DNA from: Vibrio neonatus
GTDB taxonomy: Bacteria; Pseudomonadota; Gammaproteobacteria; Enterobacterales; Vibrionaceae
DNA: 64,000 bases
Assembly (NCBI RefSeq): GCF_024346975.1
Contig: NZ_AP024886.1
Location: 558,001-622,000, forward strand
Direction: 5' to 3'
Positions 17,102-31,133 of the stretch are shown here, one piece after another. Positions within the stretch are counted from its first letter, which is position 1. The number at the start of each line of letters is the position of its first letter. The notes beneath the pieces are model-generated. The model was given only the letters and a program-made list of their open reading frames with translations. It was not told the DNA's origin and searched no databases. A program made the position numbers and the translations under genes.

Positions 17102-17116
17102 GAATTAGAGAAATTC
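17102..17116. promoter_or_regulatory. GAATT-N5-AATTC operator 1
   Basis: GAATTAGAGAAATTC, identical to the site at 27540 and the reverse complement of 30620-30634. It lies 120 bp upstream of the alpha/beta-hydrolase start. Confidence 0.65.
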
Positions 17117-17143
17117 ATTCTTGAATAAGAAATAGACAAATTT

Positions 17144-17158
17144 GAATTACTGTAATTC
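17144..17158. promoter_or_regulatory. GAATT-N5-AATTC operator 2
   Basis: GAATTACTGTAATTC, a perfect 15-bp palindrome 78 bp upstream of the hydrolase ATG and 28 bp after site 1. Confidence 0.7.
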
Positions 17159-17235
17159 ATCGTCAGTGTCCAATTTTGCGCGAATAATAGCCGTACTTAA
17201 TTAATAACGGCTTACACGCTCAAACTGGATTACCG

Positions 17236-18279
17236 ATGAAAAAGAAACTATTACGCACATTTGTCTCTACCTTATTTATTGGCTTATCAACTAGCACAGC
17301 TTTTGCATCTATGACTATGGGTGAGCGAACAATTCCTACTCCGGTAGGGGTTTCGCCAGAGTTTGCTCAAATTATAGAAAACAGAACGGTTGCACCTCCA
17401 TTGTCAGTGCCGACGAATACAGAAGAGTGGTCAGCGCTACAAGCTCAGTTTGATGCCCCTGGAATCGAAGTGACTCGTCAAGCGCTAGAGCGTTTGCAAG
17501 TCACTTATGAAGCCAAGCAGTTTGCAGGGGTCGATACCTTCTTTGTCACGCCAAAGCATATTGCCCCTGAGTATAAAGATAAGTGGCTAGTCCACATTCA
17601 TGGTGGTGCGTTTGTTTTCGGTGGTGGTGAATCAGCGTTGCGAGAAGCTATTTGGGTTGCTAACGGGATTGGTGCTCAGGTCATTTCTATTGATTATCGT
17701 CAGCCGCCACTGCACCCATTCCCTGCGGCCATTGATGATGCTGTGGCAGTATGGAAAGAGCTAATAAAAACACAATCCCCGGAGTCAACCGCGATTTTTG
17801 GTACATCTGCAGGCGGTAACTTAACCTTAGCGACAACTCTTAAACTGCAACAACTCGATCTTCCTGCGCCCGGCGCATTGTTTGTTGGTACGCCAGCGGT
17901 CGATCTTAAAGAGACATCGGATTCTTGGTTAACACTGCAGGGCTTAGATCCTCTAGGTCAGCGCGAAGGGTTAATTGAGAGTACTTTTGATGTGTATGCT
18001 GGTGGAGAAGCGCGCGATAATCCTCTTATTTCACCGATATACGCTGACATTGATGAATTCCCACCAACAGTTTTCATTTCGGGAACTCGTGATCTGTTAC
18101 TCAGTGACACGGTTCGAATGCATCGACTTTTGCGTAGTGCAGGTGTAGATACGGATCTGCATATCTATGATGCTCAATCTCATGGCGATTATTTGAATAA
18201 CCTTTTATTTGACATGCCAGAGTCAGAAGACGCACTTAATGAACTAAAAATGTTCTTTAATCAGCACATTAATAAATAA
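17236..18279 (+). CDS. secreted alpha/beta-hydrolase (HSL-type esterase)
   Basis: A 347-residue enzyme with a signal peptide (LLRTFVSTLFIGLSTSTAFA), so periplasmic or secreted. The hormone-sensitive-lipase family oxyanion motif is HGGAFVFGGG, and the nucleophile elbow is GTSAGGN, with Ser in place of the usual GDSAGG context. The acid and base lie in SGTRDLLLSD and QSHGDYL near the C-terminus. Family members hydrolyse short-chain esters. Two GAATT-N5-AATTC sites precede it. A coupled small ORF and mscS follow, probably in one transcript, which places an esterase in an envelope-stress setting. Confidence 0.87.
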   Translation: MKKKLLRTFVSTLFIGLSTSTAFASMTMGERTIPTPVGVSPEFAQIIENRTVAPPLSVPTNTEEWSALQAQFDAPGIEVTRQALERLQVTYEAKQFAGVDTFFVTPKHIAPEYKDKWLVHIHGGAFVFGGGESALREAIWVANGIGAQVISIDYRQPPLHPFPAAIDDAVAVWKELIKTQSPESTAIFGTSAGGNLTLATTLKLQQLDLPAPGALFVGTPAVDLKETSDSWLTLQGLDPLGQREGLIESTFDVYAGGEARDNPLISPIYADIDEFPPTVFISGTRDLLLSDTVRMHRLLRSAGVDTDLHIYDAQSHGDYLNNLLFDMPESEDALNELKMFFNQHINK

Positions 18280-18340
18280 AAATAGGGATGTTAATAGATA
18301 ATTGTTCACAGGGATGTGGCTTCTTATATAGGAGGCTATT

Positions 18341-18493
18341 ATGACCAAGATTTTTGCTTCTATTTTTAGATGTAGCGCTTCGTTATTGCGAGCGAACTAC
18401 CATTACTCTCAACATCAATCCATCTTTGAACATTCATATTCAACCACTCCTATGCTGGAATTTCCCCATGTAACGGGCGGGAGAGTACGGTGA
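18341..18493 (+). CDS. small ORF translationally coupled to mscS (50 aa)
   Basis: A strong AGGAGG 5 nt before the ATG drives a 50-codon frame (MTKIFASIFRCSASLLRANY...) whose TGA overlaps the GTG start of the MscS gene (GTGA). This geometry is typical of translational coupling. The peptide is basic with no clear domain. It may be a leader whose translation opens the mscS start. Confidence 0.6.
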   Translation: MTKIFASIFRCSASLLRANYHYSQHQSIFEHSYSTTPMLEFPHVTGGRVR

Positions 18494-20286
18494 TTCGAGT
18501 GATATTCAAAACACTACTTGGCTGGTATTTATTGATATTCAGTTCAGTAGCGGTTTCAAGCACAAGCCTTGGGCTATCGGATACCTCTAGCCCAAGTCAA
18601 ACCTTAGCCAGTTTCATGCGAGACTCCAGTATTGTTATTGAGCACTGGCAGCAAGAAACCTTGTATTTAAAAGAAGCCCAGTACGCCTATTCCCAAGTTC
18701 AACGCACCATGGATCTCTCAATGGTGCCAAATCGTAGTAGAACTGTGGTTGTGATGGAAAAAGTCATTCTACTAAGAGAGTTACTTGAGCGAATAGACCC
18801 AAAGATTCATCAACTTGCTCCTAGCCATAAACAAGTTGTAGAGCGCGGGATTGAGCATTGGCGATTTGGAAATACGGAAATTGTCATTTCGCGTCAATTG
18901 GAGGGTGAGCGTAGCGACCAGTTTTTATTTAGCTCTAGTACCATTCAAAGTTTGCCACGTTGGTATCGCACGATGTCAGCGTCTCCTTATGATAAAGAAC
19001 AACGTCATGATTATTATCAAGAGTTTCTGATTAGCCCTGGACCACTATTTTCTAAGCAGTTCATCTTATCTCTGCCTAAATCATTTAATCAGCTTCTTGG
19101 CCCATTACCTTTATGGCAATGGTTGGCATTTGGTGGTGTCCTTATCATGTGCCGGTTATTGATGAAAATCAGTTTTCATTTGGGGGCACGTTGGGATCAG
19201 CGCTGGGAAAGCAGAGGCATAAAGTGGCGGGCAGGCAGGTTGTTCTCATTAGTTGGGGTGGTGAACTTATTGCTTGTTGCAAGATGGGTAATTGATGATG
19301 GTGTCTGGATCACAGGAAGTATCTATCAACTGTTTACCACCTTATTTTTACTGGCTCAGTTCTTCTTTGTCTCATGGCTCATCATGGCCATTTTTAATTA
19401 CTTTGCGAACATTTATACCTTTAAAAAGCACAACGGAAAACATGTTGATTCATCATTGATTACCGTGCTTGCCCGTATCTTTGGTGGCCTTACTATTGTC
19501 ATTCTTGGCGTTTATGTCATTGAGTTCATGGGTTTTTCAATCTCACCTATTCTTGCGGGTCTGGGTGTGGGTGGTCTAGCGGTCGCGTTGGCGGTTCGAC
19601 CTATCCTAGAAAACGTTATCAATGGACTCACACTCTATGCTGACGGCGGGGTTAAGCTGGGCGAGTTCTGTCGTTATGGGGATAAACTGGGAACTATAGA
19701 GAGTATTGGCTTACGCTCAACGCGTGTTCGAACTCTAGAGCGCTCTTTGATTACCATCCCCAACTCTGAGTTTGCCAATATGGAGATTGATAACTTAGAG
19801 CGACGTGATAAACGACGTATGGATCATATTATTCGGCTTCGTTCAGAAACGACACTCGATCAGCTGCGGGTACTGATTGTCAATATTCGTCGCTTGTTAT
19901 TGCAACATCCTATGATTGAAGAAGAACCGGTGCGGGTTCGATTGATGGGAGTAGGGGAATACTCAATTAATATCAATATGATGGCTTACATTAGTTGTCG
20001 CGATAATGAAGAGTTTATGGCGGTGCAAGAAGATATTCTGTTTTCAATGCTGACTCAGGTCGATAGCGTTGGGGCGAAGATTGCGCATTCCACGCAGTAC
20101 CAATTGTTCAATAAAGTATCATCGGATAACCAAGAACAGAAACGCAAAGCGGAGCAAGTGGTCGCACAGTGGCATGAAGAGCAAGCGTTCCCGTTTCCTG
20201 ATTTTAGTTACGAATATAAATTTGAAATTAAAGACTCAATTATGTACCCAGCAGCAACGTCTGCAGTGCGTCCGTCTTCTACTTAA
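18490..20286 (+). CDS. MscS-family mechanosensitive channel
   Basis: A 598-residue protein beginning with GTG (GGGAG upstream). It has a signal-like N-terminus, a ~170-residue periplasmic helical domain, then several membrane helices from about residue 205 to 380. The pore-lining TM3 is recognisable: SPILAGLGVGGLAVALAVRP, followed by the beta-domain start DGGVKLGEFCRYGDKLGTIESIGLRSTRVRT and IPNSEFANMEIDNLERRDKRR. The C-terminal domain is typical of mid-size MscS paralogues (YbdG/YnaI-like size). The protein releases solutes on hypo-osmotic shock. It is third in the operon starting with the hydrolase gene. Confidence 0.9.
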   Translation: MIRVIFKTLLGWYLLIFSSVAVSSTSLGLSDTSSPSQTLASFMRDSSIVIEHWQQETLYLKEAQYAYSQVQRTMDLSMVPNRSRTVVVMEKVILLRELLERIDPKIHQLAPSHKQVVERGIEHWRFGNTEIVISRQLEGERSDQFLFSSSTIQSLPRWYRTMSASPYDKEQRHDYYQEFLISPGPLFSKQFILSLPKSFNQLLGPLPLWQWLAFGGVLIMCRLLMKISFHLGARWDQRWESRGIKWRAGRLFSLVGVVNLLLVARWVIDDGVWITGSIYQLFTTLFLLAQFFFVSWLIMAIFNYFANIYTFKKHNGKHVDSSLITVLARIFGGLTIVILGVYVIEFMGFSISPILAGLGVGGLAVALAVRPILENVINGLTLYADGGVKLGEFCRYGDKLGTIESIGLRSTRVRTLERSLITIPNSEFANMEIDNLERRDKRRMDHIIRLRSETTLDQLRVLIVNIRRLLLQHPMIEEEPVRVRLMGVGEYSININMMAYISCRDNEEFMAVQEDILFSMLTQVDSVGAKIAHSTQYQLFNKVSSDNQEQKRKAEQVVAQWHEEQAFPFPDFSYEYKFEIKDSIMYPAATSAVRPSST

Positions 20287-20337
20287 AACGAAGCCAATTA
20301 ATACGTACTCAGCTCCTTCATACCTTCAAGTATCATG

Positions 20338-20366
20338 CCCTAAAGCGATCCATTATCGCTTTAGGG
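20338..20366 (+). terminator. terminator after mscS
   Basis: CCCTAAAGCGAT (20338-20349) pairs perfectly with ATCGCTTTAGGG (20355-20366). It lies between the convergent mscS and LysR genes and may serve both, although neither side has a long U-run. Confidence 0.65.
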
Positions 20367-20424
20367 ACTTGAGTTTGGCTGGTGGTTTTTATTTGAGAGC
20401 AGAAGCCAGAAAGCGGGCGTATTA

Positions 20425-21354
20425 TCAACTGTCTGGTTGAACTACGCTGTCAAAGTAACTCTGCATAGTTTGATGCAACAGTTGATGAAGCGGAAAGCCT
20501 CGCTTGGATTGAAGATAGCCACCCTCTACAACAATTTGGCGCATTTCTTTTGGCAAGTTGGGTAATGGGTAACAGCTGAGATCCGGATCATTGGCGGTCA
20601 TAAAGCTGCTACCAAAAGAGAAAGCATCTGAATTTTTCAGCTTACTGCGTAATACAGTCAGACTATGTGTCGCTAACACAACATTTGCGGTGTAGCCTTT
20701 TGATATATAAAGATCTTCGATTGGCGCTCGTTTGGTGTTGATGCCATCAATCAGGATTCTTGTGATCGGTAGATGATGAATATCTTCCCATTCACTGCTC
20801 CTACTTAGTACCGGATGCTCTTTGCGCGCAATAAGGCTCAACTTTACTTCGGTAAGTTTATGTTGGTAGATATCTTGAGGTAATGGGATGCCGGAAAGTT
20901 GCAACAAGTAATCGACTTGTCCATTTAGTACTTCTGCTAAGCTTTTGTCTTGCCAGTAGACCAATTTAAAGTTCGCTTGTGGAAGTGCCTCATGTAGAAC
21001 CTTAAAAATCCCTTCTCCGTATTGTTCAATTAGAAATATGTTCAAAGCGATGGTGACTTCACCGGTAAACATTTTTGGATCAAAGTTGTGGTAGGACTCA
21101 ACCACCTTAATCAAAGGAGAGTACATTTCATCGGCCGCTTCGGCGAGTTTCTCTGCCAGTTCTGAAGGCTCAACGCCGTGTGCTTTGCGAAGAAAAAGTT
21201 GGTCGCCAAAAGTCTCTCTTAACTTCGCCATTCCTCTGCTGACACTGGTTTGCGATATACCCAGCTTGTCTGCTGCCGCGTGAGTATTACGAGTCTCCAC
21301 AACCGCTTTAAGTAACTTGAGCAGATTTAGGTCTAAGTCTTGAAGTTCTTTCAT
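20425..21354 (-). CDS. LysR-family transcriptional regulator (candidate regulator of the GAATT-N5-AATTC sites)
   Basis: A 309-residue LTTR. The N-terminal winged helix reads LDLNLLKLLKAVVETRNTHAAADKLGISQTSVSRGMAKLRETFGDQLF, in the style of the NodD/LeuO branch. The effector domain covers residues ~95-300. Its own upstream region (21394-21408) has GAATAAGGGAAATTA, a two-mismatch version of the dyad found in front of the neighbouring operons, suggesting autoregulation. It is central among the genes carrying these sites. That it controls them is inference from position and site type. Confidence 0.85.
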   Translation of the reverse strand: MKELQDLDLNLLKLLKAVVETRNTHAAADKLGISQTSVSRGMAKLRETFGDQLFLRKAHGVEPSELAEKLAEAADEMYSPLIKVVESYHNFDPKMFTGEVTIALNIFLIEQYGEGIFKVLHEALPQANFKLVYWQDKSLAEVLNGQVDYLLQLSGIPLPQDIYQHKLTEVKLSLIARKEHPVLSRSSEWEDIHHLPITRILIDGINTKRAPIEDLYISKGYTANVVLATHSLTVLRSKLKNSDAFSFGSSFMTANDPDLSCYPLPNLPKEMRQIVVEGGYLQSKRGFPLHQLLHQTMQSYFDSVVQPDS

Positions 21355-21393
21355 GGGTTCCCTTGTGGCAATGAAGTTCTATACATCATTTAA

Positions 21394-21408
21394 GAATAAG
21401 GGAAATTA
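21394..21408. promoter_or_regulatory. weak GAATT-N5-AATTC site before the LysR gene
   Basis: GAATAAGGGAAATTA matches 8 of the 10 fixed positions and lies 40 bp upstream of the LysR ATG. Confidence 0.45.
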
Positions 21409-21641
21409 GCGTTTCTTCAATAGCTTAGGAATGAAATGTGTTGAATAATGTTTGCTACGATTCGCAGGAATGTACTATGAGCAAAATGAGCGTTCAACCA
21501 AAGGTATTTTATGTCGTAAGGGCTGGCAACATCCGTGTTACAAAGGGCTGGTAAAGAGTTGATGTGAAATAACAAGAGCCTAAGTTAGAGTGTATCGAAT
21601 TAGCTTAAGCACGCAGAAGCACTAAAAATGCATAAATACAG

Positions 21642-22343
21642 TTAAAACGCATACGCGTAGTTAAGGCCAAGTTTGTTGTCTGACTGATCATAGATGCCAT
21701 AGTTAATGGAAACATTTTGATTATCTGCGATTCGATAGGAGAAGCTAGTTTCCCAGTCTAACGTATTGATTTTAAGTGTCTGGTCACTCAAAGACATCGT
21801 ATAGATGGGTGCGATCATTATTGAGGTTTGTTCTGTAATAGTAATCACACTGTATAATTGTGCCATGGCAATAGGGACATTTTTATCAAGATTATTGCTG
21901 GAGATGATGCCCGCGCCAATAACGGGTGCGATAATGAGTCGTTCATGCAGTGGCAAGACTTGCATCGCGTTCAATACGACAGTGTGTGTGTCGTTGCGAT
22001 CATCATATAAGTAGTCGCCCATCACGCCGCTACCAAAATGGGTGCTGAGTGCCGCAGCTCTAACTCTATATGTGTCAAAGTTATTCAAAGCCTGAGCAAA
22101 TATCAGAGCAGCCCAATTGTCGGAGATAGTTCTCGCATAACCAAATCCGGTATCAAAGCCTTCGCTGTTGTAGCCTAACTGAAGAGAACTATAAGCTGCG
22201 GTCGGATCGGTGAAATCAATAGGGGATGTTTCTATGGTCGCTTCTGTAAATTCTTCTACAGCGGATTCAAAGTCGAGAGTATTTTCATTGGCGATTGAAT
22301 AGGCGCTTATTACACAACTCAGCAATAATAGTTTATTTTTCAA
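21642..22343 (-). CDS. outer-membrane beta-barrel protein, paralogue 1
   Basis: A 233-residue protein with a signal peptide (LLLLSCVISAYSIA) and alternating beta-strand pattern ending in phenylalanine (LGLNYAYAF), the sorting signal for the BAM complex. It shares a core with the gene at 22590 (YSSLQLGYNSEGFDTGFGYA versus YSGFNIGYGSNDFDMGIQYA), so they are paralogues. The mature N-terminus is acidic (FESAVEEFTEATIETSP). Eight to ten strands would fit its size, so it is more likely a small barrel than a trimeric porin. Function is unknown. A MITE-like element lies just upstream. Confidence 0.75.
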   Translation of the reverse strand: MKNKLLLLSCVISAYSIANENTLDFESAVEEFTEATIETSPIDFTDPTAAYSSLQLGYNSEGFDTGFGYARTISDNWAALIFAQALNNFDTYRVRAAALSTHFGSGVMGDYLYDDRNDTHTVVLNAMQVLPLHERLIIAPVIGAGIISSNNLDKNVPIAMAQLYSVITITEQTSIMIAPIYTMSLSDQTLKINTLDWETSFSYRIADNQNVSINYGIYDQSDNKLGLNYAYAF

Positions 22344-22389
22344 AGTGGCTCACTTATTATCTGAAATAGGGAATATCTATGGTTAGGTG

Positions 22390-22552: not shown

Positions 22553-22557
22553 AAAAG

Positions 22558-22582
22558 ATGAGCTGCCAAAAATTGGCAGCTC
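22558..22582 (-). terminator. terminator of the beta-barrel gene at 22590
   Basis: GAGCTGCCAA (22560-22569) pairs with TTGGCAGCTC (22573-22582). On the minus strand ATCTTTTAATT follows. Confidence 0.75.
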
Positions 22583-22589: not shown

Positions 22590-23267
22590 TTAGAAAGAAT
22601 GTTTAAATGAGAATAATGAGAGGTTATTACCATCATCATATTGGTAGCTATACACGAATGCGTTTGTACTATTCAATTGATAACCCAATTCTGCCTTGTA
22701 ATCCCAATCTCTCAGCTTTGATTGGTTGCCATTCTTTTCTTTCACTTTACCTAAGCTGTAAGTGTATTCGGGTGTGAAGCCCATCCACAGGCTATCGTTT
22801 AGGCTATAGGTCATATCAAGTGATGCACTGGTGTAGTAGACACTACTGCTCATCTGTTGGTGCTTTAGATTACCCAGTGTCACCTGAGGTATCACAGAAA
22901 ACGATTCATTAGCCATATTCGCTTTATACAGGCTGAAGCTATAGTCATTCGCACGTAAATTATCTGATTGGTAGTTGGTATCATGCACATATTCAAAAAC
23001 AAGCCCTAAGCCATTGTTTCTTTGAAAATCAAATGCAAATTCGTGGTGATTGAAATTATCGTCACTGCTATATGAACTTAACAAGTTCCAGTCGTTATTG
23101 AGTGATTTGGCATATTGAATGCCCATATCAAAGTCATTGCTTCCGTAACCAATATTAAAACCTGAGTAGTGTTGTTTAGATTCAGAGAAATTAACATTGG
23201 AATCTGCAATGACTAAAGGCGAAGAAATAAGTGATGCAATTAATAGTGAAGTTTTCGTTAGTTTCAT
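22590..23267 (-). CDS. outer-membrane beta-barrel protein, paralogue 2
   Basis: A 225-residue protein with a signal peptide (SLLIASLISSPLVIA-D) and a C-terminal aromatic ending (LFSFKHSF). It is rich in Tyr, Ser and Asn with amphipathic strands, and is paralogous to 21642-22343 through the N-terminal strand pair. The GAATT-N5-AATTC-type palindrome lies 65 bp upstream of its ATG, in a promoter position. It has its own terminator, so it is monocistronic. Probably a small envelope barrel induced with the other site-bearing genes; the substrate, if any, is unknown. Confidence 0.75.
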   Translation of the reverse strand: MKLTKTSLLIASLISSPLVIADSNVNFSESKQHYSGFNIGYGSNDFDMGIQYAKSLNNDWNLLSSYSSDDNFNHHEFAFDFQRNNGLGLVFEYVHDTNYQSDNLRANDYSFSLYKANMANESFSVIPQVTLGNLKHQQMSSSVYYTSASLDMTYSLNDSLWMGFTPEYTYSLGKVKEKNGNQSKLRDWDYKAELGYQLNSTNAFVYSYQYDDGNNLSLFSFKHSF

Positions 23268-23331
23268 AAATATAATCCTACTTGTGTTTGTTTATGCCTC
23301 CATTTTATTTATCGACTTAGTTATTGACTAT

Positions 23332-23346
23332 GAATTACAGTGATTC
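23332..23346. promoter_or_regulatory. GAATT-N5-AATTC-type operator before the beta-barrel gene
   Basis: GAATTACAGTGATTC has one mismatch to the dyad and is very close to the perfect site at 17144. It is 65 bp upstream of the start at 23267. Confidence 0.65.
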
Positions 23347-23365
23347 ATATTTGACAGGTATATAG

Positions 23366-23423: not shown

Positions 23424-24074
23424 TTATAAAAGCTCATTGATCTCAAGAACAATCTCTTGAATCCCTAGAGTGAAAAACTGCACTCCCATACAGATCAATA
23501 GGAAGCCCATAATGCGGGTAAATGCATTGATACCATTTTGACCAAGTGCTTTGAGCAGAGGGTACGACATGGTTAATGTGAAGGTGGCAATAAGTGCGAC
23601 CAGAGCAAGCCCTGCCACTACACCACCATAGACGCTAGTCATACTGGTGTGGTTTTCATAGGTAGCAATTTGAGCGGCTAAGCTAATGATCATCGCCATA
23701 GAGCCGGGGCCACATAGTGAAGGAATGGTCAAAGGCACGAGTGCGATTGAATCTTGTCCAGAAGGGGCTGCGCCATTATCGGAGCGAGGAAACAGCATAT
23801 TGAAGCCAATCGCGACAATGATGATGCCACCGCCTAAACGCAAGCTCGGTATTGAAATACTGAAGAGCTCGAGTACTGATGCACCAATGAAGAAGGTGAT
23901 GCACAAGGCAATGAAAAGATAGACTCCTGTCGTTTTGGCTTGCGACACAATGTAGCTCTTATCTCGCCCTTTACTCAAACCGAGTAAAACCGTTGCGGCT
24001 GCGGGCGGGTTCATTATGGGTAATAGGCCAAGAACTGTGAGTGTCATATAGGTGAACAATGTTTCTAAATGCAT
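23424..24074 (-). CDS. MarC-family integral membrane protein
   Basis: A 216-residue, six-helix protein of the MarC/SNARE-like (NAAT) family. Signature parts include LLPIMNPPAAATVLLGLSKG in the first loop and a GAAPSGQDSIALVPLTIPSLCGPGSMAMIISLA repeat half. AAGGA precedes the ATG. The family was once linked to multiple antibiotic resistance but its transport role is unsettled. It is the last gene of the chaA-dedA-mgtE-marC string (36 bp after mgtE) and is followed by a strong terminator. Confidence 0.88.
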   Translation of the reverse strand: MHLETLFTYMTLTVLGLLPIMNPPAAATVLLGLSKGRDKSYIVSQAKTTGVYLFIALCITFFIGASVLELFSISIPSLRLGGGIIIVAIGFNMLFPRSDNGAAPSGQDSIALVPLTIPSLCGPGSMAMIISLAAQIATYENHTSMTSVYGGVVAGLALVALIATFTLTMSYPLLKALGQNGINAFTRIMGFLLICMGVQFFTLGIQEIVLEINELL

Positions 24075-24110: not shown

Positions 24111-25502
24111 TCAAAGTAAAAAAGTGTGCGCTAAATACAGAATACTGAAGAACGAAATCGCGTCGGTTAAGGTGGTCAGCATTGGGCTTGATAGCATGGC
24201 TGGATCGAAGTTGAGCCGCTTTAGTAGTAAGGGCAATGTCCCCCCGATCACGACGGCAAGCGTGGAAGAAAGTGTGTAAGCGATGGCGATAACCAATGGC
24301 AATCCAGAGTGCTCCCCGCCAAGCGTGAACAGCGTCAGCAGAGCCAATACACCACCAATTAGCATTCCATTAATCGCGCCGATGGGGATCTCTTTTGCCA
24401 CCACATACAGCAGATCTTTGGCTGAGATCTGCCCCGTGGATAATTCACGTATCGACACGGCAACGGATTGATTCCCTGCAGCGCCAGAAAGGTTGGCGAC
24501 CAGCGGTAACACAGCCGCTAAGACGGCAATCTGTTCAATAATGGGTTCGTAAAGGGCAATGATTGAAATTGCGGCATAACTTAAGGCGACAGAAGGCAGT
24601 AAAAAGGCGAGTCGACGCAGATTGCGTTTTAGTATTGACATGCTGCGAGACTCATCCCCACCAAATACACCAGATTGCTCTAGCATTTGCTGTTTCGAGC
24701 GTTGGTATAACGCTTCATTGAGATGTTTAAAACCGACGATGCCTATTTGGAAACCTTGTTCATCAACGATGGGAACAACGGGATGTAAAGTGTTATCCAG
24801 TGTACTTTTAATTGTATTTAGATTCGTATCAGGGCCAATAGTAGGCACTGTGGTATCTATGTATTCCTTTAATAACGTCCCGCGTGGTAGCAAGAGTACA
24901 TCACGGATTTTCAGCCCGCCTAAATAGCTGCCGTCATTGTTATGCAAGTAAACATAGCGCCACTCTAGCCGATCTAGGTTGTGTTCTTGTGCGCTTAATA
25001 TTGCGCTCAAACTGTCTATGGTAGCGTCTGCGGGGAGTTTGAGGACTTCGCTTTTACAGATCCCTCCGGCAGAGTCTTGTGGGTAGATCAAGGCAGCACG
25101 CTCTTCGTCTTTCCATGCTGACGGTAGGGCTTGCCTGAGTCGTTTTTGTAGATCGCGTGGCAGTTCATTGAGTAGCAGTCTGCGGTCTGCGGAATGCAAA
25201 TATTGAAATAGCACTATGGTGCTGTTTTCAGGTAGTTGACTGATCAATCGTAGCAGTTCGGGATTGGATAAGTGATCAAGTAAGTTGGCCGCAAGGCTTG
25301 GGTTTACTTCGCTTAATAGCGCCCAAGTGGCGATACGTTGCGGATCAGAAAGCTTTCTTAATACTGAAGGCAATTCGACAGGTTCAGCCTTTAGAAGTGT
25401 TTGATTCAGTCGTTTAGCCTTTCTTAGAGTAAGGCTCTCCAGTATTTTGAGGTACAGCTTTTGCGCACCTTCTGATGGAAAAGCTAATGTTATTAATGTC
25501 AT
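24111..25502 (-). CDS. mgtE: MgtE magnesium transporter
   Basis: A 463-residue protein with the MgtE order: cytoplasmic N domain of helical repeats (residues ~40-135), two CBS domains (~140-265), a connecting helix, and five membrane helices. The pore signatures are LPLVANLSGAAGNQSVAVSIREL and the last-helix LNFDPAMLSSPMLTTLTDAISF. The N and CBS domains close the channel when cytosolic Mg2+ is high. It lies 45 bp after dedA and 36 bp before marC in one apparent operon. Confidence 0.93.
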   Translation of the reverse strand: MTLITLAFPSEGAQKLYLKILESLTLRKAKRLNQTLLKAEPVELPSVLRKLSDPQRIATWALLSEVNPSLAANLLDHLSNPELLRLISQLPENSTIVLFQYLHSADRRLLLNELPRDLQKRLRQALPSAWKDEERAALIYPQDSAGGICKSEVLKLPADATIDSLSAILSAQEHNLDRLEWRYVYLHNNDGSYLGGLKIRDVLLLPRGTLLKEYIDTTVPTIGPDTNLNTIKSTLDNTLHPVVPIVDEQGFQIGIVGFKHLNEALYQRSKQQMLEQSGVFGGDESRSMSILKRNLRRLAFLLPSVALSYAAISIIALYEPIIEQIAVLAAVLPLVANLSGAAGNQSVAVSIRELSTGQISAKDLLYVVAKEIPIGAINGMLIGGVLALLTLFTLGGEHSGLPLVIAIAYTLSSTLAVVIGGTLPLLLKRLNFDPAMLSSPMLTTLTDAISFFSILYLAHTFLL

Positions 25503-25547: not shown

Positions 25548-26204
25548 TTATTCGGATGTTTGTGGTTGTCGTTTCTTGGTCGTAAGCCGAATAAAGAGGG
25601 CGACAAATGCGGTGACCATCAGGAGTAAACTGCTGATTAAGAACCACTTTGTAATCAACTCTTGATATTGAGAGACGAATGGATGTCGCATGATCCACTT
25701 TCCTATCAGCAATAAACTGAACACCCAGGTAATTGAGCTGGTGAAGCTAACAATAAGCGTTCTAATTGCGCTGAGTTGTGCAATGCCCATTAACATCGGG
25801 GTCAGCACGCGAACAAATGGCACAAATCGTGATACGAACAGGGATAGAAATCCGAATCGATTCAATAGCGTTTTTGCTTTGGGTAACGATTCATCGGGCA
25901 GCGTTCGCTCTGCTTTACGCATGAATTGGGTATTGTGTAGCCAGCGTCCTTGGACATACGCCACAATACTGCCAAAAAAAGCGGCACTGGTTAGAAGCCA
26001 TAGTGCACTTGAAAACTCAATCAATCCTAAACCAATCATGCCCCCAACAAACAACACTAGGCCATCTCCGGGCAGTGGTAAGAAAACAAAACTCGACTCA
26101 AGGAAAAGTACAATACCGAGTAATAGCAATAAAACGTGCAGTGAATTCAATTCAAGAAGGGCATCAAAGTCTTGTAGCCAAATAGCAGAAATAATGTCTA
26201 ACAT
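25548..26204 (-). CDS. DedA-family membrane protein
   Basis: A 218-residue protein of the DedA/SNARE-associated (VTT) family. It has the re-entrant-loop pattern: an acidic residue in the first half (LFLESSFVFLPLPGDGLVLFVGG) and the conserved arginine pair in FVSRFVPFVRVLTPMLMG. DedA proteins flip undecaprenyl phosphate or other lipids and support membrane potential. GGAG precedes the ATG. It sits in the chaA-mgtE neighbourhood, consistent with envelope and ion homeostasis. Confidence 0.9.
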   Translation of the reverse strand: MLDIISAIWLQDFDALLELNSLHVLLLLLGIVLFLESSFVFLPLPGDGLVLFVGGMIGLGLIEFSSALWLLTSAAFFGSIVAYVQGRWLHNTQFMRKAERTLPDESLPKAKTLLNRFGFLSLFVSRFVPFVRVLTPMLMGIAQLSAIRTLIVSFTSSITWVFSLLLIGKWIMRHPFVSQYQELITKWFLISSLLLMVTAFVALFIRLTTKKRQPQTSE

Positions 26205-26225
26205 GGGAACTCCAGATTATTGTTA

Positions 26226-26251
26226 GGCTCTAGCGGGTGATAGCTAGAGCC
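26226..26251 (-). terminator. hairpin between chaA and dedA
   Basis: GGCTCTAGC (26226-26234) pairs with GCTAGAGCC (26243-26251), without a U-run. It may attenuate or process the transcript between chaA and dedA rather than end it. Confidence 0.5.
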
Positions 26252-26261
26252 GCACTATCTT

Positions 26262-27353
26262 TTAATCAAACATCAAGATGATGTAGGCAAAGAACAAAAT
26301 GAGATGGGTAGCACCGTTGAGAAAGTTTGTTCTTCCACTGCTAAAGCTCACGCTAGTCATTAATAGTGTCGCACCCAATAACACCATTTCAGCGGGGGCG
26401 AGGCCGAGCTGGATGGGTTCGTTCATTACTCCAGAAATCAGCAACACGGCCGGAACGGTGAGTGCAATCGTTGCGAGAACCGAACCAAAGAACAGATTCA
26501 TCGCGCGCTGTAATTGATTGGTCACGGCGGCTTTGACGGCGCCCACCGCTTCAGGGGCGAGAATAATCAAGGCAACAATTAAACCACCTAGAGCCGCAGG
26601 AGCGCCCATTTCTGTGATGCCATCGTTAATTGGAATCGCCAGACTTTTCGCTAACAAAATCACCACCATCAAATAACTCACCAGCATAATGGTGTGGAAT
26701 ATATTGCTGTGCAGAGGGCCATGATGTTCGTGGTGATCTTCATTATCACCATCAATGAAGTAGTCGGTATGGCTACGTGTTTGGATGAACAGGAATACGG
26801 CATACAATGCGATTGAAGCGAGCACTAATGTCCATGTTAGGCTAGTCGACATGTTACCTAGCGAATCCATACTGGTGAAATTAGGCAGTACTAAACACAG
26901 TAATGAGAGTGGAATAATGGCCACCAAGTACGCTTTTATTCCATCAAGGTTGTAGGTTTGGGTATGGTATTTAATACCACCGATTAGCAAGGTGATGCCG
27001 ACAAAGCCATTGAGCACCGCCATCACAACAGCAAACATGGTGTCACGCGCTAGGAAAGGGTTAGATTCTCCTGTCAGCATTACGGACGAGACCATAATGA
27101 CTTCGAGCAAGACAACAGACAGCGTTAATATGAGAGTGCCGTATGGGTCGCCAAGTTTTATCGCCAGCGCATCTGAGTGACGAACAACAGAAAAAATGGC
27201 GCTCATTACCGCGTAAAACAGTACCGCAGTAACCAAAATGTAGGCGAATTGAGATAATTCTCCTGTAAGTAAGTTGTCGCCGAACAGTTTAAAAAACAGC
27301 ACGGCAACAATGCCAAGAGGCAGTTTGTATTCTTGTTTGAGAGCGTTGAGCAT
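26262..27353 (-). CDS. chaA: ChaA-like calcium/cation:proton antiporter
   Basis: A 363-residue, ~11-helix CaCA-superfamily antiporter, close to the 366-residue ChaA length. The two alpha repeats are visible (GTLILTLSVVLLEVIMVSSVM and GGLIVALIILAPEAVGAVKAA, each with the key Glu). A His/Asp/Glu-rich cytoplasmic loop (DGDNEDHHEHHGP) between the halves may sense metal. It exports Ca2+ or Na+/K+ at alkaline pH. The start codon sits next to a hairpin that covers the AAGG ribosome site, and a GAATT-N5-AATTC site lies 187 bp upstream. Confidence 0.88.
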   Translation of the reverse strand: MLNALKQEYKLPLGIVAVLFFKLFGDNLLTGELSQFAYILVTAVLFYAVMSAIFSVVRHSDALAIKLGDPYGTLILTLSVVLLEVIMVSSVMLTGESNPFLARDTMFAVVMAVLNGFVGITLLIGGIKYHTQTYNLDGIKAYLVAIIPLSLLCLVLPNFTSMDSLGNMSTSLTWTLVLASIALYAVFLFIQTRSHTDYFIDGDNEDHHEHHGPLHSNIFHTIMLVSYLMVVILLAKSLAIPINDGITEMGAPAALGGLIVALIILAPEAVGAVKAAVTNQLQRAMNLFFGSVLATIALTVPAVLLISGVMNEPIQLGLAPAEMVLLGATLLMTSVSFSSGRTNFLNGATHLILFFAYIILMFD

Positions 27354-27383
27354 GTTGAGCCTTTATTGAGTAACCGAAGGCTC
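27351..27383 (-). promoter_or_regulatory. hairpin masking the chaA ribosome binding site
   Basis: In the chaA leader, GAGCCTT pairs with AAGGCTC (27377-27383 with 27357-27363 in window coordinates). The AAGG is the only ribosome site, 6-7 nt before the ATG, so translation would depend on melting this stem. Confidence 0.5.
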
Positions 27384-27539
27384 GCTAATGTCCTTTAACG
27401 AGAGTAAATCGGGTGAATACTGCAATTTCCTGTGCAGCAGACGGTTCGTTTCAAATTATGTGTTTAAGCTTTTACGTTTAAAGCGATCTGCGCGCCTAAC
27501 CATGCAGCTAACTTAAAGTGAACCGAGGATTCAGGCCAT

Positions 27540-27554
27540 GAATTAGAGAAATTC
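27540..27554. promoter_or_regulatory. GAATT-N5-AATTC operator before chaA
   Basis: GAATTAGAGAAATTC, identical to the site at 17102. It lies between chaA and the upstream secF gene. Confidence 0.65.
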
Positions 27555-27623
27555 TTTGTTGCTATCAGACGACCAACGGTCGCCTAATAGCGTTCTTAAA
27601 TACGCCGCTAGCTGTGAGCCCTA

Positions 27624-27696
27624 GCAGTAAGCAATAAGAGCAGTAATAAATAAGATCAGTAAGAAATACGAGTAATAAGCGCAGTAAGCAAAAGCT
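27624..27696. repeat. degenerate 16-bp tandem repeat after secF
   Basis: Four to five units of the type GCAGTAAGCAATAAGA lie in tandem immediately downstream of the secF stop codon. There are no spacers or leader, so it is not a CRISPR. Confidence 0.6.
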
Positions 27697-28597
27697 AAGG
27701 CATGCTTTGCAGGGGTTCCTCTTTGTCCAGTTTATAGTGGGAGGGTTTCAAACCCACGCATGTGGGTAAGAGTGTGCCAATAGAGATTGAGGACCATGTA
27801 CCACTGACAATCCCGACGCACAGCGCAATGGCGAAACCTTCTAGTGCACTCCCTCCTAACAACCACAATGCGGAGACTGTGACCAAGGTAGTGCCTGAGG
27901 TGACTAGCGTTCGTGACAAGGTTGATACGATGGACTGATCGAGAAGAGTATCGGTTTCTCCATCTGGCTTGGCGCGAAATACCTCACGGATGCGATCGGA
28001 AATGATGATCGAGTCATTTAGGGAGTAGCCCATCACTGCCAGTAAAGCGGCCAACACAGTTAGGTTGAATTCAATTTGAGTTACCGCAAAAAGCCCTAGC
28101 ACAATGACAATGTCGTAAACCAACGCCGCAATTGAACCTAACGCTAATCGCCATTCAAATCGGTAGCTCAAGTACAGCAAGGTAAGGACGAAACACGCCA
28201 AAATTGCCAAGCCGCCTTGCTCGACCATTTCTAACCCAACCTGAGGACCAATTACACTGCTGTTGGTAATCTGAAAATTACTGTCTACTGGCAACAGTGC
28301 TTGGTTGAGCGTTTTTCGCAAATCGAGGTCGGTATCATTGAAACGCAGCTGCCAATTTCCCTCGTTGCCTGCCGCCGTTACTTGAACATCTTGGCTTAGT
28401 GCTGAATCGAGGTGAGATTTGAGCAGAACTTGAGTGACGTCTGGTTTTGTTTGAATATCGGCGACGACACCTCCGGTAAAGTCGAGCCCCCAATTGAACC
28501 CCTTTGCAACGATGGATGTCATGGAAAGTGTTAATAGAATCAGAGATATTATCGTCATCAATTGACGTATTTTGGTGACGTTAATTGATTTGGTCAT
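27695..28597 (-). CDS. secF: SecF protein-export subunit
   Basis: A 300-residue membrane protein with six helices. The SecF signature near the first helix is WGLDFTGG, and the conserved TM4-5 region reads VMGYSLNDSIIISDRIRE. With SecD it uses proton or sodium flow to complete translocation of proteins through SecYEG. Its ATG overlaps the secD stop by one base (TAATG), so the two are translated together. No yajC or tgt is nearby, which suggests this is a secondary secDF set rather than the housekeeping one. Confidence 0.92.
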   Translation of the reverse strand: MTKSINVTKIRQLMTIISLILLTLSMTSIVAKGFNWGLDFTGGVVADIQTKPDVTQVLLKSHLDSALSQDVQVTAAGNEGNWQLRFNDTDLDLRKTLNQALLPVDSNFQITNSSVIGPQVGLEMVEQGGLAILACFVLTLLYLSYRFEWRLALGSIAALVYDIVIVLGLFAVTQIEFNLTVLAALLAVMGYSLNDSIIISDRIREVFRAKPDGETDTLLDQSIVSTLSRTLVTSGTTLVTVSALWLLGGSALEGFAIALCVGIVSGTWSSISIGTLLPTCVGLKPSHYKLDKEEPLQSMP

Positions 28598-30384
28598 TAC
28601 AGTTTCACCTCATGTGAGGTGTTTCTTCCCCACAAATAATTGATAAGAATTCGAGACGCAAATACGCCGGTAAATAAGCTAGTCAGTAGTCCTAATCCGA
28701 GTGTGATAGCAAAACCTTGAATTGGGCCGTTACCTATTGCATACAAAGCGATGGCAACGATCATGGTGGTGAGGTTGGCATCGAAAATAGAAGAGAATGC
28801 ACTATCGAAGCCTCTATCTATGGCTTGGGAAAAGTTTCTGCCTTCTCGCATTTTGTCTTTGATACGTTCAAAGATAAGTACGTTGGTATCAACAGCCATC
28901 CCCACGGTGAGTACGAGTCCAGCGATGCCTGGAAGTGTTAGTACAGCGCCAGGGATGAGTGCCAACAGGCCAAACAGACACACTAAGTTGATCGTCAGCG
29001 CAGCATTCGCAACCCAACCAAGGCGTCGATACCAACAGGCGATAAACACCAGTGTAAAACCAAGCCCCAAGGCGAGTGCAGCAAAGCCATTTTTGACGTT
29101 TTCAGCCCCAAGAGTGGGTCCGATGGTGCGTTCTTCTACAATGGTGACAGGAGCGGTGAGTGAGCCAGCTCTTAATAGAAGTGCAAGGTTTTGCGCGTCA
29201 GCCATTGACCCTGTGCCGGTGATGCGAAAACGGTTCCCTAGCGTGGATTGAATGGTCGCGACGCTGATCACTTCGCTTTGTTCAATGGATTGCCCGGTTT
29301 CCGTCTGACTGTATTCACTGTACACAGTTGCCATCAGGTTTCCGATATTGCTACGCGAGTGATTGCTTATCAGCCGTCCACCCGTGTTATCAAGCGTGAT
29401 GTTAACTTCGGGTATTCCCATCTCCCCTAGGCTAGCGCGTGCATCGACAATATGTTCGCCCCCCAAGATACTGTTTCTATGCAAAATGACAGGTCGACCA
29501 TCTTGGTCATTAATGGATTTTGTTCGGGTGTTGGCGTTGGGCTCCATATGGTAAAACGCCAGCGATGCCGTGGCGCCGAGAATGTTTTTTGCAGATGTCG
29601 GGTCTTGTACTCCCGGCAGCTCGATGCGAATTCGATTTTCCCCTTGGCGCTGGACTGCGGCTTCCGTGATCCCTAACTCTTCGATGCGACCTCGCATTGT
29701 TTGAAGATTTTGCGTCACCGTCAGCGTCTGAATTGCGCGTTTTTCGTCCTCATTCATTGAGAAAGTTAAACGTTCACCAGATTGGCTAACAGTCCAATGT
29801 GGATACTGCGTTCTTAAGTGGGTTCGAATATCGCCAAGTAATGCTTCGTTATATCGAGTTATGACCACTTCCCCATGCTCTACACGAGCGCGTAGACGAA
29901 ACGTCTGGCGTAGGTCGTCGACCATAGATTGTGCGTGTGCATCAAAGACAGGGGCGAGATCTACGTCTAACAGAAATTGCACACCACCACGCAGATCTAA
30001 TCCGAACTTAATCGGTTGAAAGCCTAGCGAGGTTAGCCAAGAAGGGGCTGAAGACTCAAGTGCAAGGGCAACGGTCTCCGGTGATTGAACGAATTTGGAC
30101 ATTAATGCTTGTGCGGCGGGCTGTTGTCCGCTTGAAGCAAACGTCACAACTAACCGATCGTTGTTTTCGCTAACACTGTGAACATCAATGTTGTTGTCTA
30201 CAAGATAGCGATATACATCATCCGCGTGTGCCGAATGCGTTTGGTTTGAAATGTGCAAAGCTTCACGTTCACCAAAGGTTGAGGGCAGGGCACTGAGTAG
30301 CATCAGTACCACAGACAGCACGAGAACGATGACCTTCCATTTAGCGGAATAATTTATGGGTGCGATTGAGCGCTTTAACTTCAT
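28597..30384 (-). CDS. secD: SecD protein-export subunit
   Basis: A 595-residue membrane protein. TM1 is at ~16-36, then comes the large periplasmic P1 domain with GLDLRGGVQFLLDVD, and five more helices from ~430, including the Asp-containing LTVGMAVDTNVLIFERIKDKMREGR needed for ion coupling. It is the first gene of the secDF pair. The upstream gap has two GAATT-N5-AATTC dyads shared with a divergent gene. In Vibrio alginolyticus the second secDF is preceded by the arrest peptide gene vemP; there is no room for a vemP-size gene here. Confidence 0.92.
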   Translation of the reverse strand: MKLKRSIAPINYSAKWKVIVLVLSVVLMLLSALPSTFGEREALHISNQTHSAHADDVYRYLVDNNIDVHSVSENNDRLVVTFASSGQQPAAQALMSKFVQSPETVALALESSAPSWLTSLGFQPIKFGLDLRGGVQFLLDVDLAPVFDAHAQSMVDDLRQTFRLRARVEHGEVVITRYNEALLGDIRTHLRTQYPHWTVSQSGERLTFSMNEDEKRAIQTLTVTQNLQTMRGRIEELGITEAAVQRQGENRIRIELPGVQDPTSAKNILGATASLAFYHMEPNANTRTKSINDQDGRPVILHRNSILGGEHIVDARASLGEMGIPEVNITLDNTGGRLISNHSRSNIGNLMATVYSEYSQTETGQSIEQSEVISVATIQSTLGNRFRITGTGSMADAQNLALLLRAGSLTAPVTIVEERTIGPTLGAENVKNGFAALALGLGFTLVFIACWYRRLGWVANAALTINLVCLFGLLALIPGAVLTLPGIAGLVLTVGMAVDTNVLIFERIKDKMREGRNFSQAIDRGFDSAFSSIFDANLTTMIVAIALYAIGNGPIQGFAITLGLGLLTSLFTGVFASRILINYLWGRNTSHEVKL

Positions 30385-30575
30385 TTTGGTTGCATCTTAT
30401 TGATTAACGCATACGTAAGTAGCACAGAGTTTATGTATTCAATAAACACAAGTATTAATCAGGTATGAGTTGAAACTAAGGGGTCTGAAGGAGTGTCGAT
30501 GGCACTTTCGCTTGCATCGATAAACCTAACTGTTGGTTACCGAGCCATCTTAGTTTCTTGATTCAATAGAGCTAT

Positions 30576-30590
30576 GGGTTAGAGAAATTC
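30576..30590. promoter_or_regulatory. GAATT-N5-AATTC-type operator, secD-side
   Basis: GGGTTAGAGAAATTC: the right half-site and AGAGA core match the other sites, the left half is degenerate. It is in the secD/30698 divergent gap. Confidence 0.5.
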
Positions 30591-30619
30591 ATATTTGGTT
30601 TGCTCGACTGTTCAGATAT

Positions 30620-30634
30620 GAATTTCTCTAATTC
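30620..30634. promoter_or_regulatory. GAATT-N5-AATTC operator, divergent gap
   Basis: GAATTTCTCTAATTC, the exact reverse complement of the sites at 17102 and 27540. It is 44 bp from the previous site and 64 bp before the ATG at 30698. Confidence 0.65.
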
Positions 30635-30697
30635 CTCGCAGAGATTTGATTTATTCAAAACAATGGAATTTGAATTAATGATTGAGGATAAATCTAC

Positions 30698-31072
30698 ATG
30701 GATTACACAATATATTTAAACGACCGCAAGTATAGAGTTTGCGATATTGGCGAAGGGAGATGCACTCTAGTGCTCAGCTACGCAGAAGGCATAGAGTCTT
30801 TGCATGAGCACTTTAGCCATCCGCTTCTTGAGATAGAAAGAACGATAGTCATTGATATTTCAACCTGTTGGAGCGGAGAAATCGACACACTGTGCGAAAA
30901 CGATCGCTACGAGTTAACCGAAGATGTTCGGTTATTAACGGACATCTTTTGGCTTGATGACTTTGAAATTAAAACGGATCACGGACAAGCCATATTTCAG
31001 GGAATTTCTGAATCCGCTTTGCCGATTGAAAGTAGTATGAGCTGCGCAAGTAGTGGTAATGAGTCATTGTGA
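30698..31072 (+). CDS. hypothetical protein
   Basis: A 124-residue acidic, soluble protein with no signal or membrane helix. The N-terminal half alternates strands (YTIYLNDRKYRVCDIGEGRCTLVLSYAEG). GAGGA lies upstream of the ATG. I do not recognise the family. It is divergent from secD and shares the operator region with it, so it is probably co-regulated with secDF and the next gene. Confidence 0.6.
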   Translation: MDYTIYLNDRKYRVCDIGEGRCTLVLSYAEGIESLHEHFSHPLLEIERTIVIDISTCWSGEIDTLCENDRYELTEDVRLLTDIFWLDDFEIKTDHGQAIFQGISESALPIESSMSCASSGNESL

Positions 31073-31118
31073 TGCGCCAGAATCCAAAGGTGAATTTGAG
31101 TGCTGATTAACCAAATAT

Positions 31119-31133
31119 GACTTTCTCTAATTC
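31119..31133. promoter_or_regulatory. GAATT-N5-AATTC-type operator before the alkylsulfatase-like gene
   Basis: GACTTTCTCTAATTC has one mismatch in the left half-site. It is 87 bp before the ATG at 31220. Confidence 0.6.

What the first reader, a model, noticed from the sequence alone, without database searches (positions are those of the whole stretch)
17102..31133. Local regulon of GAATT-N5-AATTC dyads linking a LysR regulator to envelope, ion and secretion genes
Eight copies of one 15-bp dyad occur in 14 kb: 17102 and 17144 (perfect palindrome), 21394 (weak), 23332, 27540, 30576, 30620, 31119. Each lies in the gap before a transcription unit: hydrolase-smORF-mscS, LysR, beta-barrel, chaA-dedA-mgtE-marC, secDF/30698 and the alkylsulfatase-like gene. 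The 17102 and 27540 sites are identical and 30620 is their exact reverse complement. I did not see the motif in promoters elsewhere in the window. The LysR at 20425 sits in the middle and has its own weak site. Together this reads as an undescribed envelope/osmotic/ion stress system: channel, antiporter, Mg2+ transport, lipid flipping, auxiliary translocase drive and surface barrels under one LTTR.
Basis: partly seen in the sequence, partly recalled or inferred. Interest (0 to 1): 0.8.

Follow-up and report, generated by a model that had tools for sequence, protein, structure and literature searches.

The report
LysR regulon with a promoter code
A stretch of a marine Vibrio-type genome carries a set of envelope, transport and hydrolase genes whose promoters share one DNA element that goes with one neighbouring gene regulator, and the set includes a tiny conserved membrane protein.

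Summary
Seven of the eight listed dyads hold; 21394 is not a site. In the whole genome all 6 places with at most one mismatch to TGAATTWCTSTAATTCA lie in this locus. Of 227 genomes of the genus, 33 have a LysR at least 60% identical and all 33 have the strict site; 3 others have it too. 113 of 129 sites lie within 25 kb of a LysR of this family. Sites precede the same gene families in differently ordered loci.

In 106 non-redundant sites a -10 box (TATAAT) emerged outside the selected bases at one fixed offset. The dyad centre is thus near -44, abutting a weak -35, often with an inverted partner 41-45 bp upstream. This fits a LysR-type activator.

New parts: a 26-aa membrane microprotein (16966-17046, minus) and a half-size alpha/beta-hydrolase-fold protein (30698-31072).

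A second LysR clade goes with TGAATA instead of TGAATT; residue 25 tracks the switch, on few independent changes.

Binding, sign of regulation and inducer are untested. Osmotic/ion stress is not shown.

The parts
17143..17159 (+). dyad for the hydrolase-mscS unit; -10 AATAAT at 17183-17188, start of transcription inferred near 17195
   Evidence: profile 32.7 bits, -10 score 5.8
17101..17117 (-). inverted partner dyad, 42 bp from 17143; -10 CATAAT at 17077-17072; precedes the microprotein gene
   Evidence: 33.5 bits, -10 score 4.8; spacing
16966..17046 (-). 26-aa predicted single-pass membrane microprotein MKYLPVCMIFVGYLAFFFFLVVRLNG, 71 bases from the first base of the dyad
   Evidence: pN/pS 0.25 over 13 chosen orthologues
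17236..18279 (+). alpha/beta hydrolase (Abhydrolase_3), signal peptide by inspection
18490..20286 (+). MscS-type channel
20425..21354 (-). LysR-type regulator, the proposed reader of the dyads
   Evidence: PF00126 and PF03466; co-occurrence
21642..22343 (-). bb1, barrel-type exported protein by inspection only
   Evidence: no Pfam or NCBIfam match
22590..23267 (-). bb2, barrel-type exported protein by inspection only
   Evidence: no Pfam or NCBIfam match; its family lies behind dyads in 20 of 70 loci
23331..23347 (-). dyad for bb2 (possibly bb2-bb1-lysR); -10 TAAAAT at 23307-23302
   Evidence: 29.2 bits, -10 score 5.5
23424..24074 (-). MarC family protein
   Evidence: terminator-like hairpin behind it at 23397-23372
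24111..25502 (-). MgtE Mg2+ transporter
25548..26204 (-). DedA family protein (VTT domain)
26262..27353 (-). ChaA-like cation/proton antiporter (332.9 bits, below the ChaA cut-off of 505)
27539..27555 (-). dyad for chaA-dedA-mgtE-marC; -10 TAAGTT at 27515-27510 (weak)
   Evidence: 33.4 bits, -10 score 2.1
27695..28597 (-). secF of the regulon's SecDF set
28597..30384 (-). secD of the regulon's SecDF set
30575..30591 (-). dyad for secDF; no clear -10 at the fixed offset
   Evidence: 31.0 bits, -10 score -1.8
30619..30635 (+). inverted partner dyad, 44 bp from 30575; -10 AACAAT at 30659-30664; precedes u124
   Evidence: 36.5 bits, -10 score 4.5
30698..31072 (+). u124: half-size alpha/beta-hydrolase-fold protein without a conserved nucleophile
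31118..31134 (+). dyad for the alkylsulfatase-like gene; -10 TGTAAT at 31158-31163
   Evidence: 36.4 bits, -10 score 2.5
31220..32980 (+). alkylsulfatase-like metallo-beta-lactamase-fold protein
   Evidence: PF14863, PF14864, PF00753

Best explanation
The locus is a self-contained regulon of a LysR-type activator. LysR (20425-21354) binds a 26-bp element, CAAA-(T/A)-(A/T)-TGAATTTCTCTAATTCA-T-(A/C)-G, built on a 17-bp dyad. The dyad centre lies near -44 and its edge abuts a poor -35 hexamer that stands 17 bp from a good -10. LysR bound there would bring RNA polymerase to the weak promoter once an unknown inducer is present. About a third of the promoters have an inverted second copy 41-45 bp upstream (about four helical turns, same face), as expected for a tetramer bridging two dyads; the two such pairs in this window serve divergent genes. 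The targets here are a hydrolase and MscS, a 26-aa membrane microprotein, a barrel-type protein, ChaA-DedA-MgtE-MarC, an extra SecDF set, the half-hydrolase u124 and an alkylsulfatase-like enzyme. Shown by computation: the sites, their distribution, their promoter geometry, the conservation of the microprotein. Inferred: that LysR is the binder, that it activates, that it acts as a tetramer. Guessed: the signal, perhaps a membrane-active or toxic amphiphilic compound, since efflux pumps, esterases and sulfatase-like enzymes recur among the targets of relatives.
For: All 6 places with at most 1 mismatch in 3.84 Mb are in this locus; two places with 2 mismatches lie elsewhere. In 227 genomes the A-type site is in 36, a LysR of 60% identity or more in 33, and all 33 have the site (Fisher 1e-36, not corrected for shared descent). 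113 of 129 sites found by scanning whole genomes, without regard to LysR, lie within 25 kb of a LysR at least 48% identical. Eight genomes (G009, G035, G039, G126, G155, G165, G218, G262) carry both LysR clades, each near its own site type. The same families stand behind the sites in differently ordered loci: u124 in 35, hydrolase 25, chaA 22, bb2 20, RND pump 18 of 70 stretches (two overlapping stretches of G140 are counted apart). In 106 non-redundant sites chosen by the 17-mer alone, TATAAT emerges at +40 to +45 (A 98 and T 94 of 106 at its second and last base); scored with a -10 profile made from these sites, 85 of 106 pass the 95% background level at offset 40, and 0 to 12 at each of the 33 other offsets from 26 to 59. 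Position 2 of the -35 is T in only 6 of 106, as in activator-dependent promoters. Inverted partner half-sites at spacing 40-46: 37 of 106 A sites and 13 of 24 B sites, against 0-7 and 0-2 in control ranges. LysR residue 25, in the helix-turn-helix, is the position of 304 that best tracks site type: His in 54 of 54 readable A-type cases, Ser, Ala or Gln in 21 of 21 readable B-type cases. A plasmid not used for the profile has six hits, each before a hydrolase, the microprotein, secD, chaA or a small unnamed protein in the place of u124.
Against: No binding or expression data. Site and LysR are linked, so co-inheritance inflates the co-occurrence. On a tree the site type changes only 4 times; 2 independent starred pairs go the right way, too few for significance. 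16 of 129 sites are not near a LysR of this family. Three genomes (G021, G056, G158) have A-type sites without a LysR of 60% identity, and 9 genomes have a LysR of 48-59% without an exact B-type site. 21 of 72 named loci around LysR relatives have neither site type at up to one mismatch, one of them (L151) with a LysR of 73%. The secD dyad here lacks a -10 at the fixed offset. The dyad does not fit T-N11-A in its own symmetry register. Other regulators common to the loci were not searched for systematically. A repressor could also sit at -44. The plasmid carries a LysR 85% identical and is close to loci in the set.
Confidence: 0.8

Rival explanations
1. LysR reads the dyads but as a repressor that an inducer removes, or with both signs at different promoters.
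For: A dyad that abuts -35 could block RNA polymerase. BsrA, the LysR protein with the best-scoring NCBIfam model here, represses several of its promoters (passages of PMC8407307).
Against: The -35 is poor in nearly all promoters while the -10 is good and rigidly spaced, the pattern of promoters that need help.
Confidence: 0.17
2. Another transcription factor, linked or global, reads the dyads and LysR is only a neighbour.
For: No binding data. The dyad lacks the T-N11-A register typical of LysR boxes (described in passages). Other regulators were not searched for systematically.
Against: 33 of the 36 genomes with an A-type site have the close LysR, and 181 of 184 genomes without any site lack a LysR of 48% or more. 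Site type follows LysR clade, also in eight genomes that hold both. The pairing extends over several genera (those loci were fetched by LysR).
Confidence: 0.06
3. The repeats are a mobile or repetitive element with no regulatory role.
For: Several copies in a short stretch, some in inverted pairs; the module is patchy in the genus and also on plasmids.
Against: The -10 has fixed spacing to the dyad although the sequence between them varies, and copies lie before genes of the same set even where gene order differs.
Confidence: 0.01
4. The regulon serves osmotic or ion stress, rather than toxic amphiphiles.
For: MscS, ChaA and MgtE are ion- or turgor-related by family; Vibrio SecD2F2 responds to low sodium (passages of PMC11470409).
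Against: Across relatives RND pumps, tannase-type and other esterases, alkylsulfatase-like enzymes, DUF2860 and MipA proteins recur, and chaA, mgtE and mscS are missing from the fetched stretch in several loci with sites, such as L158 and L162-L167.
Confidence: 0.3

Closest known systems
LysR-type transcriptional regulators of the BsrA/YbeF/YidZ/LeuO neighbourhood
   Same: HTH_1 and LysR_substrate domains; best NCBIfam models BsrA, YbeF, YidZ and LeuO; best solved chains are called LysR-type regulatory proteins, such as 5ae4 and 1uth
   Different: Far below every curated cut-off (73.9 bits against 480 for BsrA); its proposed element is a specific 17-bp dyad confined in this genome to one locus, whereas BsrA is reported at hundreds of loose T-N11-A sites (passages)
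Classical LysR operator (RBS near -65 with T-N11-A, ABS at -35/-10; passages)
   Same: Where paired, two sub-sites on one face of the helix upstream of a sigma-70 promoter
   Different: Strong dyad at about -44 that abuts -35; the partner, where present, is an inverted copy 41-45 bp upstream; T-N11-A is not in the symmetry register
Vibrio SecD1F1 and VemP-SecD2F2 (passages of PMC11470409)
   Same: SecDF motor subunits; an extra set under special control
   Different: Five of seven relatives examined have three or more SecD loci; copies other than the regulon one are 45% and 54-63% identical to the window's secD; which of them is SecD2 was not tested. Here no room for a VemP-sized gene (length recalled) between dyad and secD
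Epoxide hydrolase / haloalkane dehalogenase fold, and TT1977 (2dst_A)
   Different: u124 covers only the first half of the fold, up to the strand-turn-helix that holds the nucleophile in hydrolases; no conserved Ser or Asp is seen there, and the second half with the catalytic His is absent
Small single-pass membrane proteins such as AcrZ and MgtS (recalled)
   Same: One hydrophobic helix, gene next to transporter genes
   Different: No sequence relation tested; conserved Tyr-Leu pair and a dyad-preceded gene of its own

Membership tests
LysR-type transcriptional regulator (protein) | N-terminal HTH_1 and C-terminal LysR_substrate domain | tested here: met
   PF00126 58.9 bits and PF03466 34.9 bits, both above cut-off
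LysR-type operator | T-N11-A in the symmetry register of the dyad | tested here: not met
   TGAAT-N7-ATTCA puts A and T, not T and A, at the 13-bp register; T-N11-A occurs only off centre (consensus)
LysR-type operator | binding by the LysR protein | not testable with these tools
   needs EMSA, footprint or DAP-seq
LysR-type operator | two sub-sites on one face of the helix | tested here: inconclusive
   met at a part of the promoters only: 37 of 106 A sites and 13 of 24 B sites
BsrA / LeuO / YidZ equivalogs | NCBIfam curated cut-off | tested here: not met
   73.9 of 480, 56.2 of 262 and 56.4 of 314 bits
Active alpha/beta hydrolase (u124) | conserved nucleophile and catalytic His | tested here: not met
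   no conserved nucleophile in 18 aligned relatives and only the first half of the fold present
VemP-controlled SecD2F2 | vemP gene between promoter and secD | tested here: not met
   about 155 bases between the inferred start and secD in the window (VemP length recalled); in a G006-type locus the gene between is a DUF1214 protein

The most novel reading that the evidence does not exclude
A family of LysR activators stamps the promoters of a portable gene set with one 26-bp element; among the set's most constant companions are two undescribed proteins, a 26-aa membrane microprotein and a half-size hydrolase-fold protein without catalytic residues, which together would act as membrane sensor or modulator of the transporters and SecDF. 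Two LysR clades read two versions of the element, switched by one residue (His25 or Ser25), so the two regulons can live side by side in one cell without cross-talk; eight genomes of the genus hold both.
Probability: 0.3. Interest if true: 0.75.

Novelty: new variant of a known kind. Interest (0 to 1): 0.62.

Why it matters
It gives a ready-made test case for how a LysR protein and its DNA element change together: two clades, two elements, one candidate residue, in eight genomes side by side. The promoter geometry is sharp enough to predict targets, and it led to a conserved membrane microprotein that is not in the feature table of the plasmid I read (that table is incomplete by its own description). 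It also puts an extra SecDF set under its own transcriptional element; if the 54-63% copies in relatives are the VemP-controlled SecD2F2 (not tested), this is a third export motor, and the question is when marine bacteria need it.

Tried and rejected

Sites far from LysR: 9 A-type sites. In 4 of the 9 a family of the regulon follows (hydrolase in G126, marC in G004, mgtE-marC at 401 bases in G056, u124 and DUF1214-secDF in G238), but all four assemblies are drafts of 60-220 contigs, so these may be linked after all. 3 of the 9 (G021, G158, one of two in G238) lie in one conserved stretch without regulon genes, and 2 (G006, G271) before unrelated genes. A sign test of residue 25 against site type failed for lack of independent changes. 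Site labels are per locus, so tandem LysR genes share one label. Two loci with both site types (L080, L189) were left out of the residue count. Loci without a label served as a prediction: L185, L188, L151 and L088 (His25) have TGAATT-type sites as best or second-best and L187 and L089 (Ser25) TGAATA-type, but L186 (His25) has TGAATA in its top site and L088's top site is CGAATC: met mostly, not always.

Paper searches for this regulon or its parts together: no paper; 9 listed; 8 of 30 listed; 1; 1; I saw listings and starts of abstracts, and none of them describes it. The library lacks most subscription journals. Searches were background on LysR operators. Passages were read of PMC6018408, PMC8407307 and PMC11470409; no paper was read whole.

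Rows dropped before counts: sites with under 70 bases before or 100 after their first base, and promoters at least 75% identical downstream to one already taken (167 to 106 A sites, 29 to 24 B sites); LysR proteins identical in their last 200 residues (144 to 103; many loci had been fetched twice) and those above 93% identity (103 to 78); two LysR in pieces (L153, L191) have no residue 25. The script stopped with an error after its counts; the part that failed was redone on 13 chosen orthologues.
Full report
What is in the window. Seven copies of a 17-bp dyad stand before genes between 17101 and 31134. Against a profile built from other loci (the 2 of 106 rows identical to the window removed, close relatives kept) they score 29.2 to 36.5 bits; the next place in 64 kb scores 15.4. 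The genes are an alpha/beta hydrolase and an MscS channel, LysR, two small barrel-type proteins (by inspection), marC-mgtE-dedA-chaA, secDF, a 124-aa protein (u124) and an alkylsulfatase-like enzyme.

More than chance. The bare pattern GAATTN5AATTC has 9 places in the 3.84-Mb genome, and its reversed control has 10; 5 of the 9 are here (binomial 8e-11, with the region chosen after the fact). With TGAATTWCTSTAATTCA, all 6 places with at most one mismatch are here; of the places with two mismatches, two lie elsewhere. Up to three mismatches the counts (37 and 35 on the two strands) are hardly above the control (28 and 32), so the element is not spread over the genome. In 42 loci chosen for this LysR, TGAATT-N5-AATTCA occurs 69 times; 60 arms of the same composition have a mean of 1.32, the true arm included.

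It travels with LysR. In 227 genomes of the genus, a pattern that covers two variants of the element has 129 places in 43 genomes; by my count of the table its reversed control has 12. LysR relatives were found in a separate search. A-type sites are in 36 genomes, LysR of at least 60% identity in 33, and all 33 have sites. B-type sites (TGAATA...TTATTC) are in 14 genomes, 13 of them with a LysR of 48-59% identity; 9 genomes have such a LysR without an exact B-type site. 113 of the 129 places lie within 25 kb of a LysR of this family. The Fisher values are not corrected for descent. Eight genomes hold both clades, each LysR near its own site type. The module is also on plasmids of Vibrio fortis and V. 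alfacsensis.

It stays with the genes. In 70 stretches (two of them, from G140, overlap) I asked which gene family starts within 400 bases of a site and runs away from it: u124 in 35, hydrolase 25, chaA 22, bb2 20, an RND pump (f9, f10) 18, a DUF2860 protein 12, secD 10 and a DUF1214 gene before secD 7, mscS 8, lysR 8, alkylsulfatase-like 6. Gene order differs between lineages, and units keep their own sites. As a test, plasmid pYa108 of V. alfacsensis, not used before (LysR 85% identical; 2 profile rows that occur in it were left out), has six places above 12 bits in 28.9 kb, all above 26, and each lies before a gene of the set: hydrolase, microprotein, a second alpha/beta hydrolase, a small hypothetical protein in the place of u124 (identity not tested), secD and chaA.

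Promoter geometry. From 91 loci I took 167 different sites by the 17-mer alone (at most one mismatch) and reduced them to 106 with different downstream sequence. Outside the selected 17 bases the alignment shows CAAA(T/A)(A/T) before the dyad, T(A/C)G after it, TATAAT at +40 to +45 and a pyrimidine-A at +51/+52. Scored with a -10 profile made from these sites, 85 of 106 pass the 95% background level at offset 40, and 0 to 12 at each of the 33 other offsets from 26 to 59. Counting from the -10, the dyad centre is near -44, and the T at +17 is the first base of a -35 hexamer with a 17-bp spacer. Position 2 of that hexamer is T in only 6 of 106, so the -35 is poor. An inverted partner half-site stands at centre spacing 40-46 in 37 of 106 A sites and 13 of 24 B sites; control ranges give 0-7 and 0-2; the 7 fall at 50-54, about one turn further. 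Both members of a divergent pair are counted, so pairs are fewer than these numbers. In the window six of the seven sites have a -10 score of 2.1 or more at the offset; the secD site has none. This is the layout of an activator that touches RNA polymerase, with a second dimer four turns upstream at a part of the promoters.

How it differs from the textbook LysR operator. Passages in PMC8407307 put the recognition site near -65 with T-N11-A and the activation site at -35 and -10. Here the strong dyad itself is at -44, and T-N11-A is not in its symmetry register.

Which protein reads it. Two LysR clades go with two elements. Of 77 LysR proteins with one site type in their locus, residue 25 is His in 54 of 54 readable A-type cases and Ser, Ala or Gln in 21 of 21 readable B-type cases; by mutual information it is first of 304 positions. 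It lies in the helix-turn-helix domain. On a quick tree built without that column the site type changes 4 times and two independent starred pairs agree, which is too few for a test. In loci without an exact site the best degenerate sites mostly follow the rule, with exceptions told under Tried and rejected. More distant LysR relatives (33-40% identity) mostly stand beside small multidrug resistance type genes; of four such loci scanned, three (L094, L198, L203) have CAAAAATGAATATCTC between the two and L095 a variant, so the family seems to be one of local regulators.

Two undescribed products. (1) The leftward site 17101 has no larger gene, but 71 bases from its first base a 26-aa open frame begins behind GAGGA; 7 of 7 loci chosen for a leftward partner have it. 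A search of all loci by a peptide profile found 36 different peptides of this type; 35 have a site with at most 3 mismatches 40-110 bases upstream, most at 65-84, against 22 of 2000 random positions. The 12 seeds of the profile had been seen next to sites, so the association is partly by design. Thirteen chosen orthologues give pN/pS 0.25 (a first count on 8 peptides gave 0.38); identity is 0.77 in the frame and 0.33 in the 78 bases after it. In several B-type loci it is near the RND pump. A type I toxin-like peptide is a reading that I cannot exclude. (2) u124 belongs to a family with no Pfam name; 82 relatives were found, and the names given by sources are 'hypothetical', 'conserved hypothetical' or 'uncharacterized' protein or merely a place. 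The model (mean pLDDT 82) matches the first half of epoxide hydrolases and haloalkane dehalogenases, up to the place of the nucleophile, where no Ser or Asp is conserved.

SecDF. The window's genome has one other SecD, on the other contig, 46% identical. Of seven relatives, five have three or four SecD loci: one near 45% identity to the window's, one or two at 54-63%, and the regulon copy; two have two loci. The regulon copy is 92-93% identical in G011, G018 and G035 but 47% in G006 and, in two pieces, 58% and 37% in G003, so SecDF may have been drawn into the regulon more than once. In G159 the regulon copy is interrupted.

What is shown and what is not. Shown: sites, distribution, geometry, gene partners, microprotein conservation. 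Inferred: LysR as binder, activation, tetramer. Not shown: inducer and purpose. The gene set suggests defence of the envelope against harmful amphiphiles at least as much as osmotic or ion stress.

Noticed in passing
window 9500-16300: Repeat-rich, low-GC stretch left of the regulon with direct repeats of 113-300 bases, several at about 1245-base spacing, and a 30-base unit in 4 identical copies, next to a ParE/Phd-type toxin-antitoxin pair at 15653-16202.
   Followed up: partly
window 33242-34201: Haloalkane-dehalogenase-type protein (353 bits against a cut-off of 241) beside the regulon but without a dyad.
   Followed up: no
L086, L087, L091-L093 and other B-type loci: RND efflux pump, DUF2860 outer-membrane protein, MipA protein and glutamate symporter recur around the Ser25 LysR clade, in varying combinations.
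   Followed up: partly
L094-L097 and 13 loci among L194-L210: LysR relatives at 33-40% identity stand beside a pair of small multidrug resistance type genes (named by inspection), in three of four scanned with a CAAAAATGAATATCTC element between them.
   Followed up: partly
L085, L114, L128: A perfect A-type site lies in one conserved stretch of three genomes, two of them without a LysR of 60% identity, between a gene that looks like aspartokinase-homoserine dehydrogenase and a small exported protein (both by inspection).
   Followed up: no
G159:C1:1466096-1467854; L078: The regulon secD of G159 is interrupted, and in G039 (L078) lysR, mscS, dedA, secF and secD are matched in pieces.
   Followed up: no
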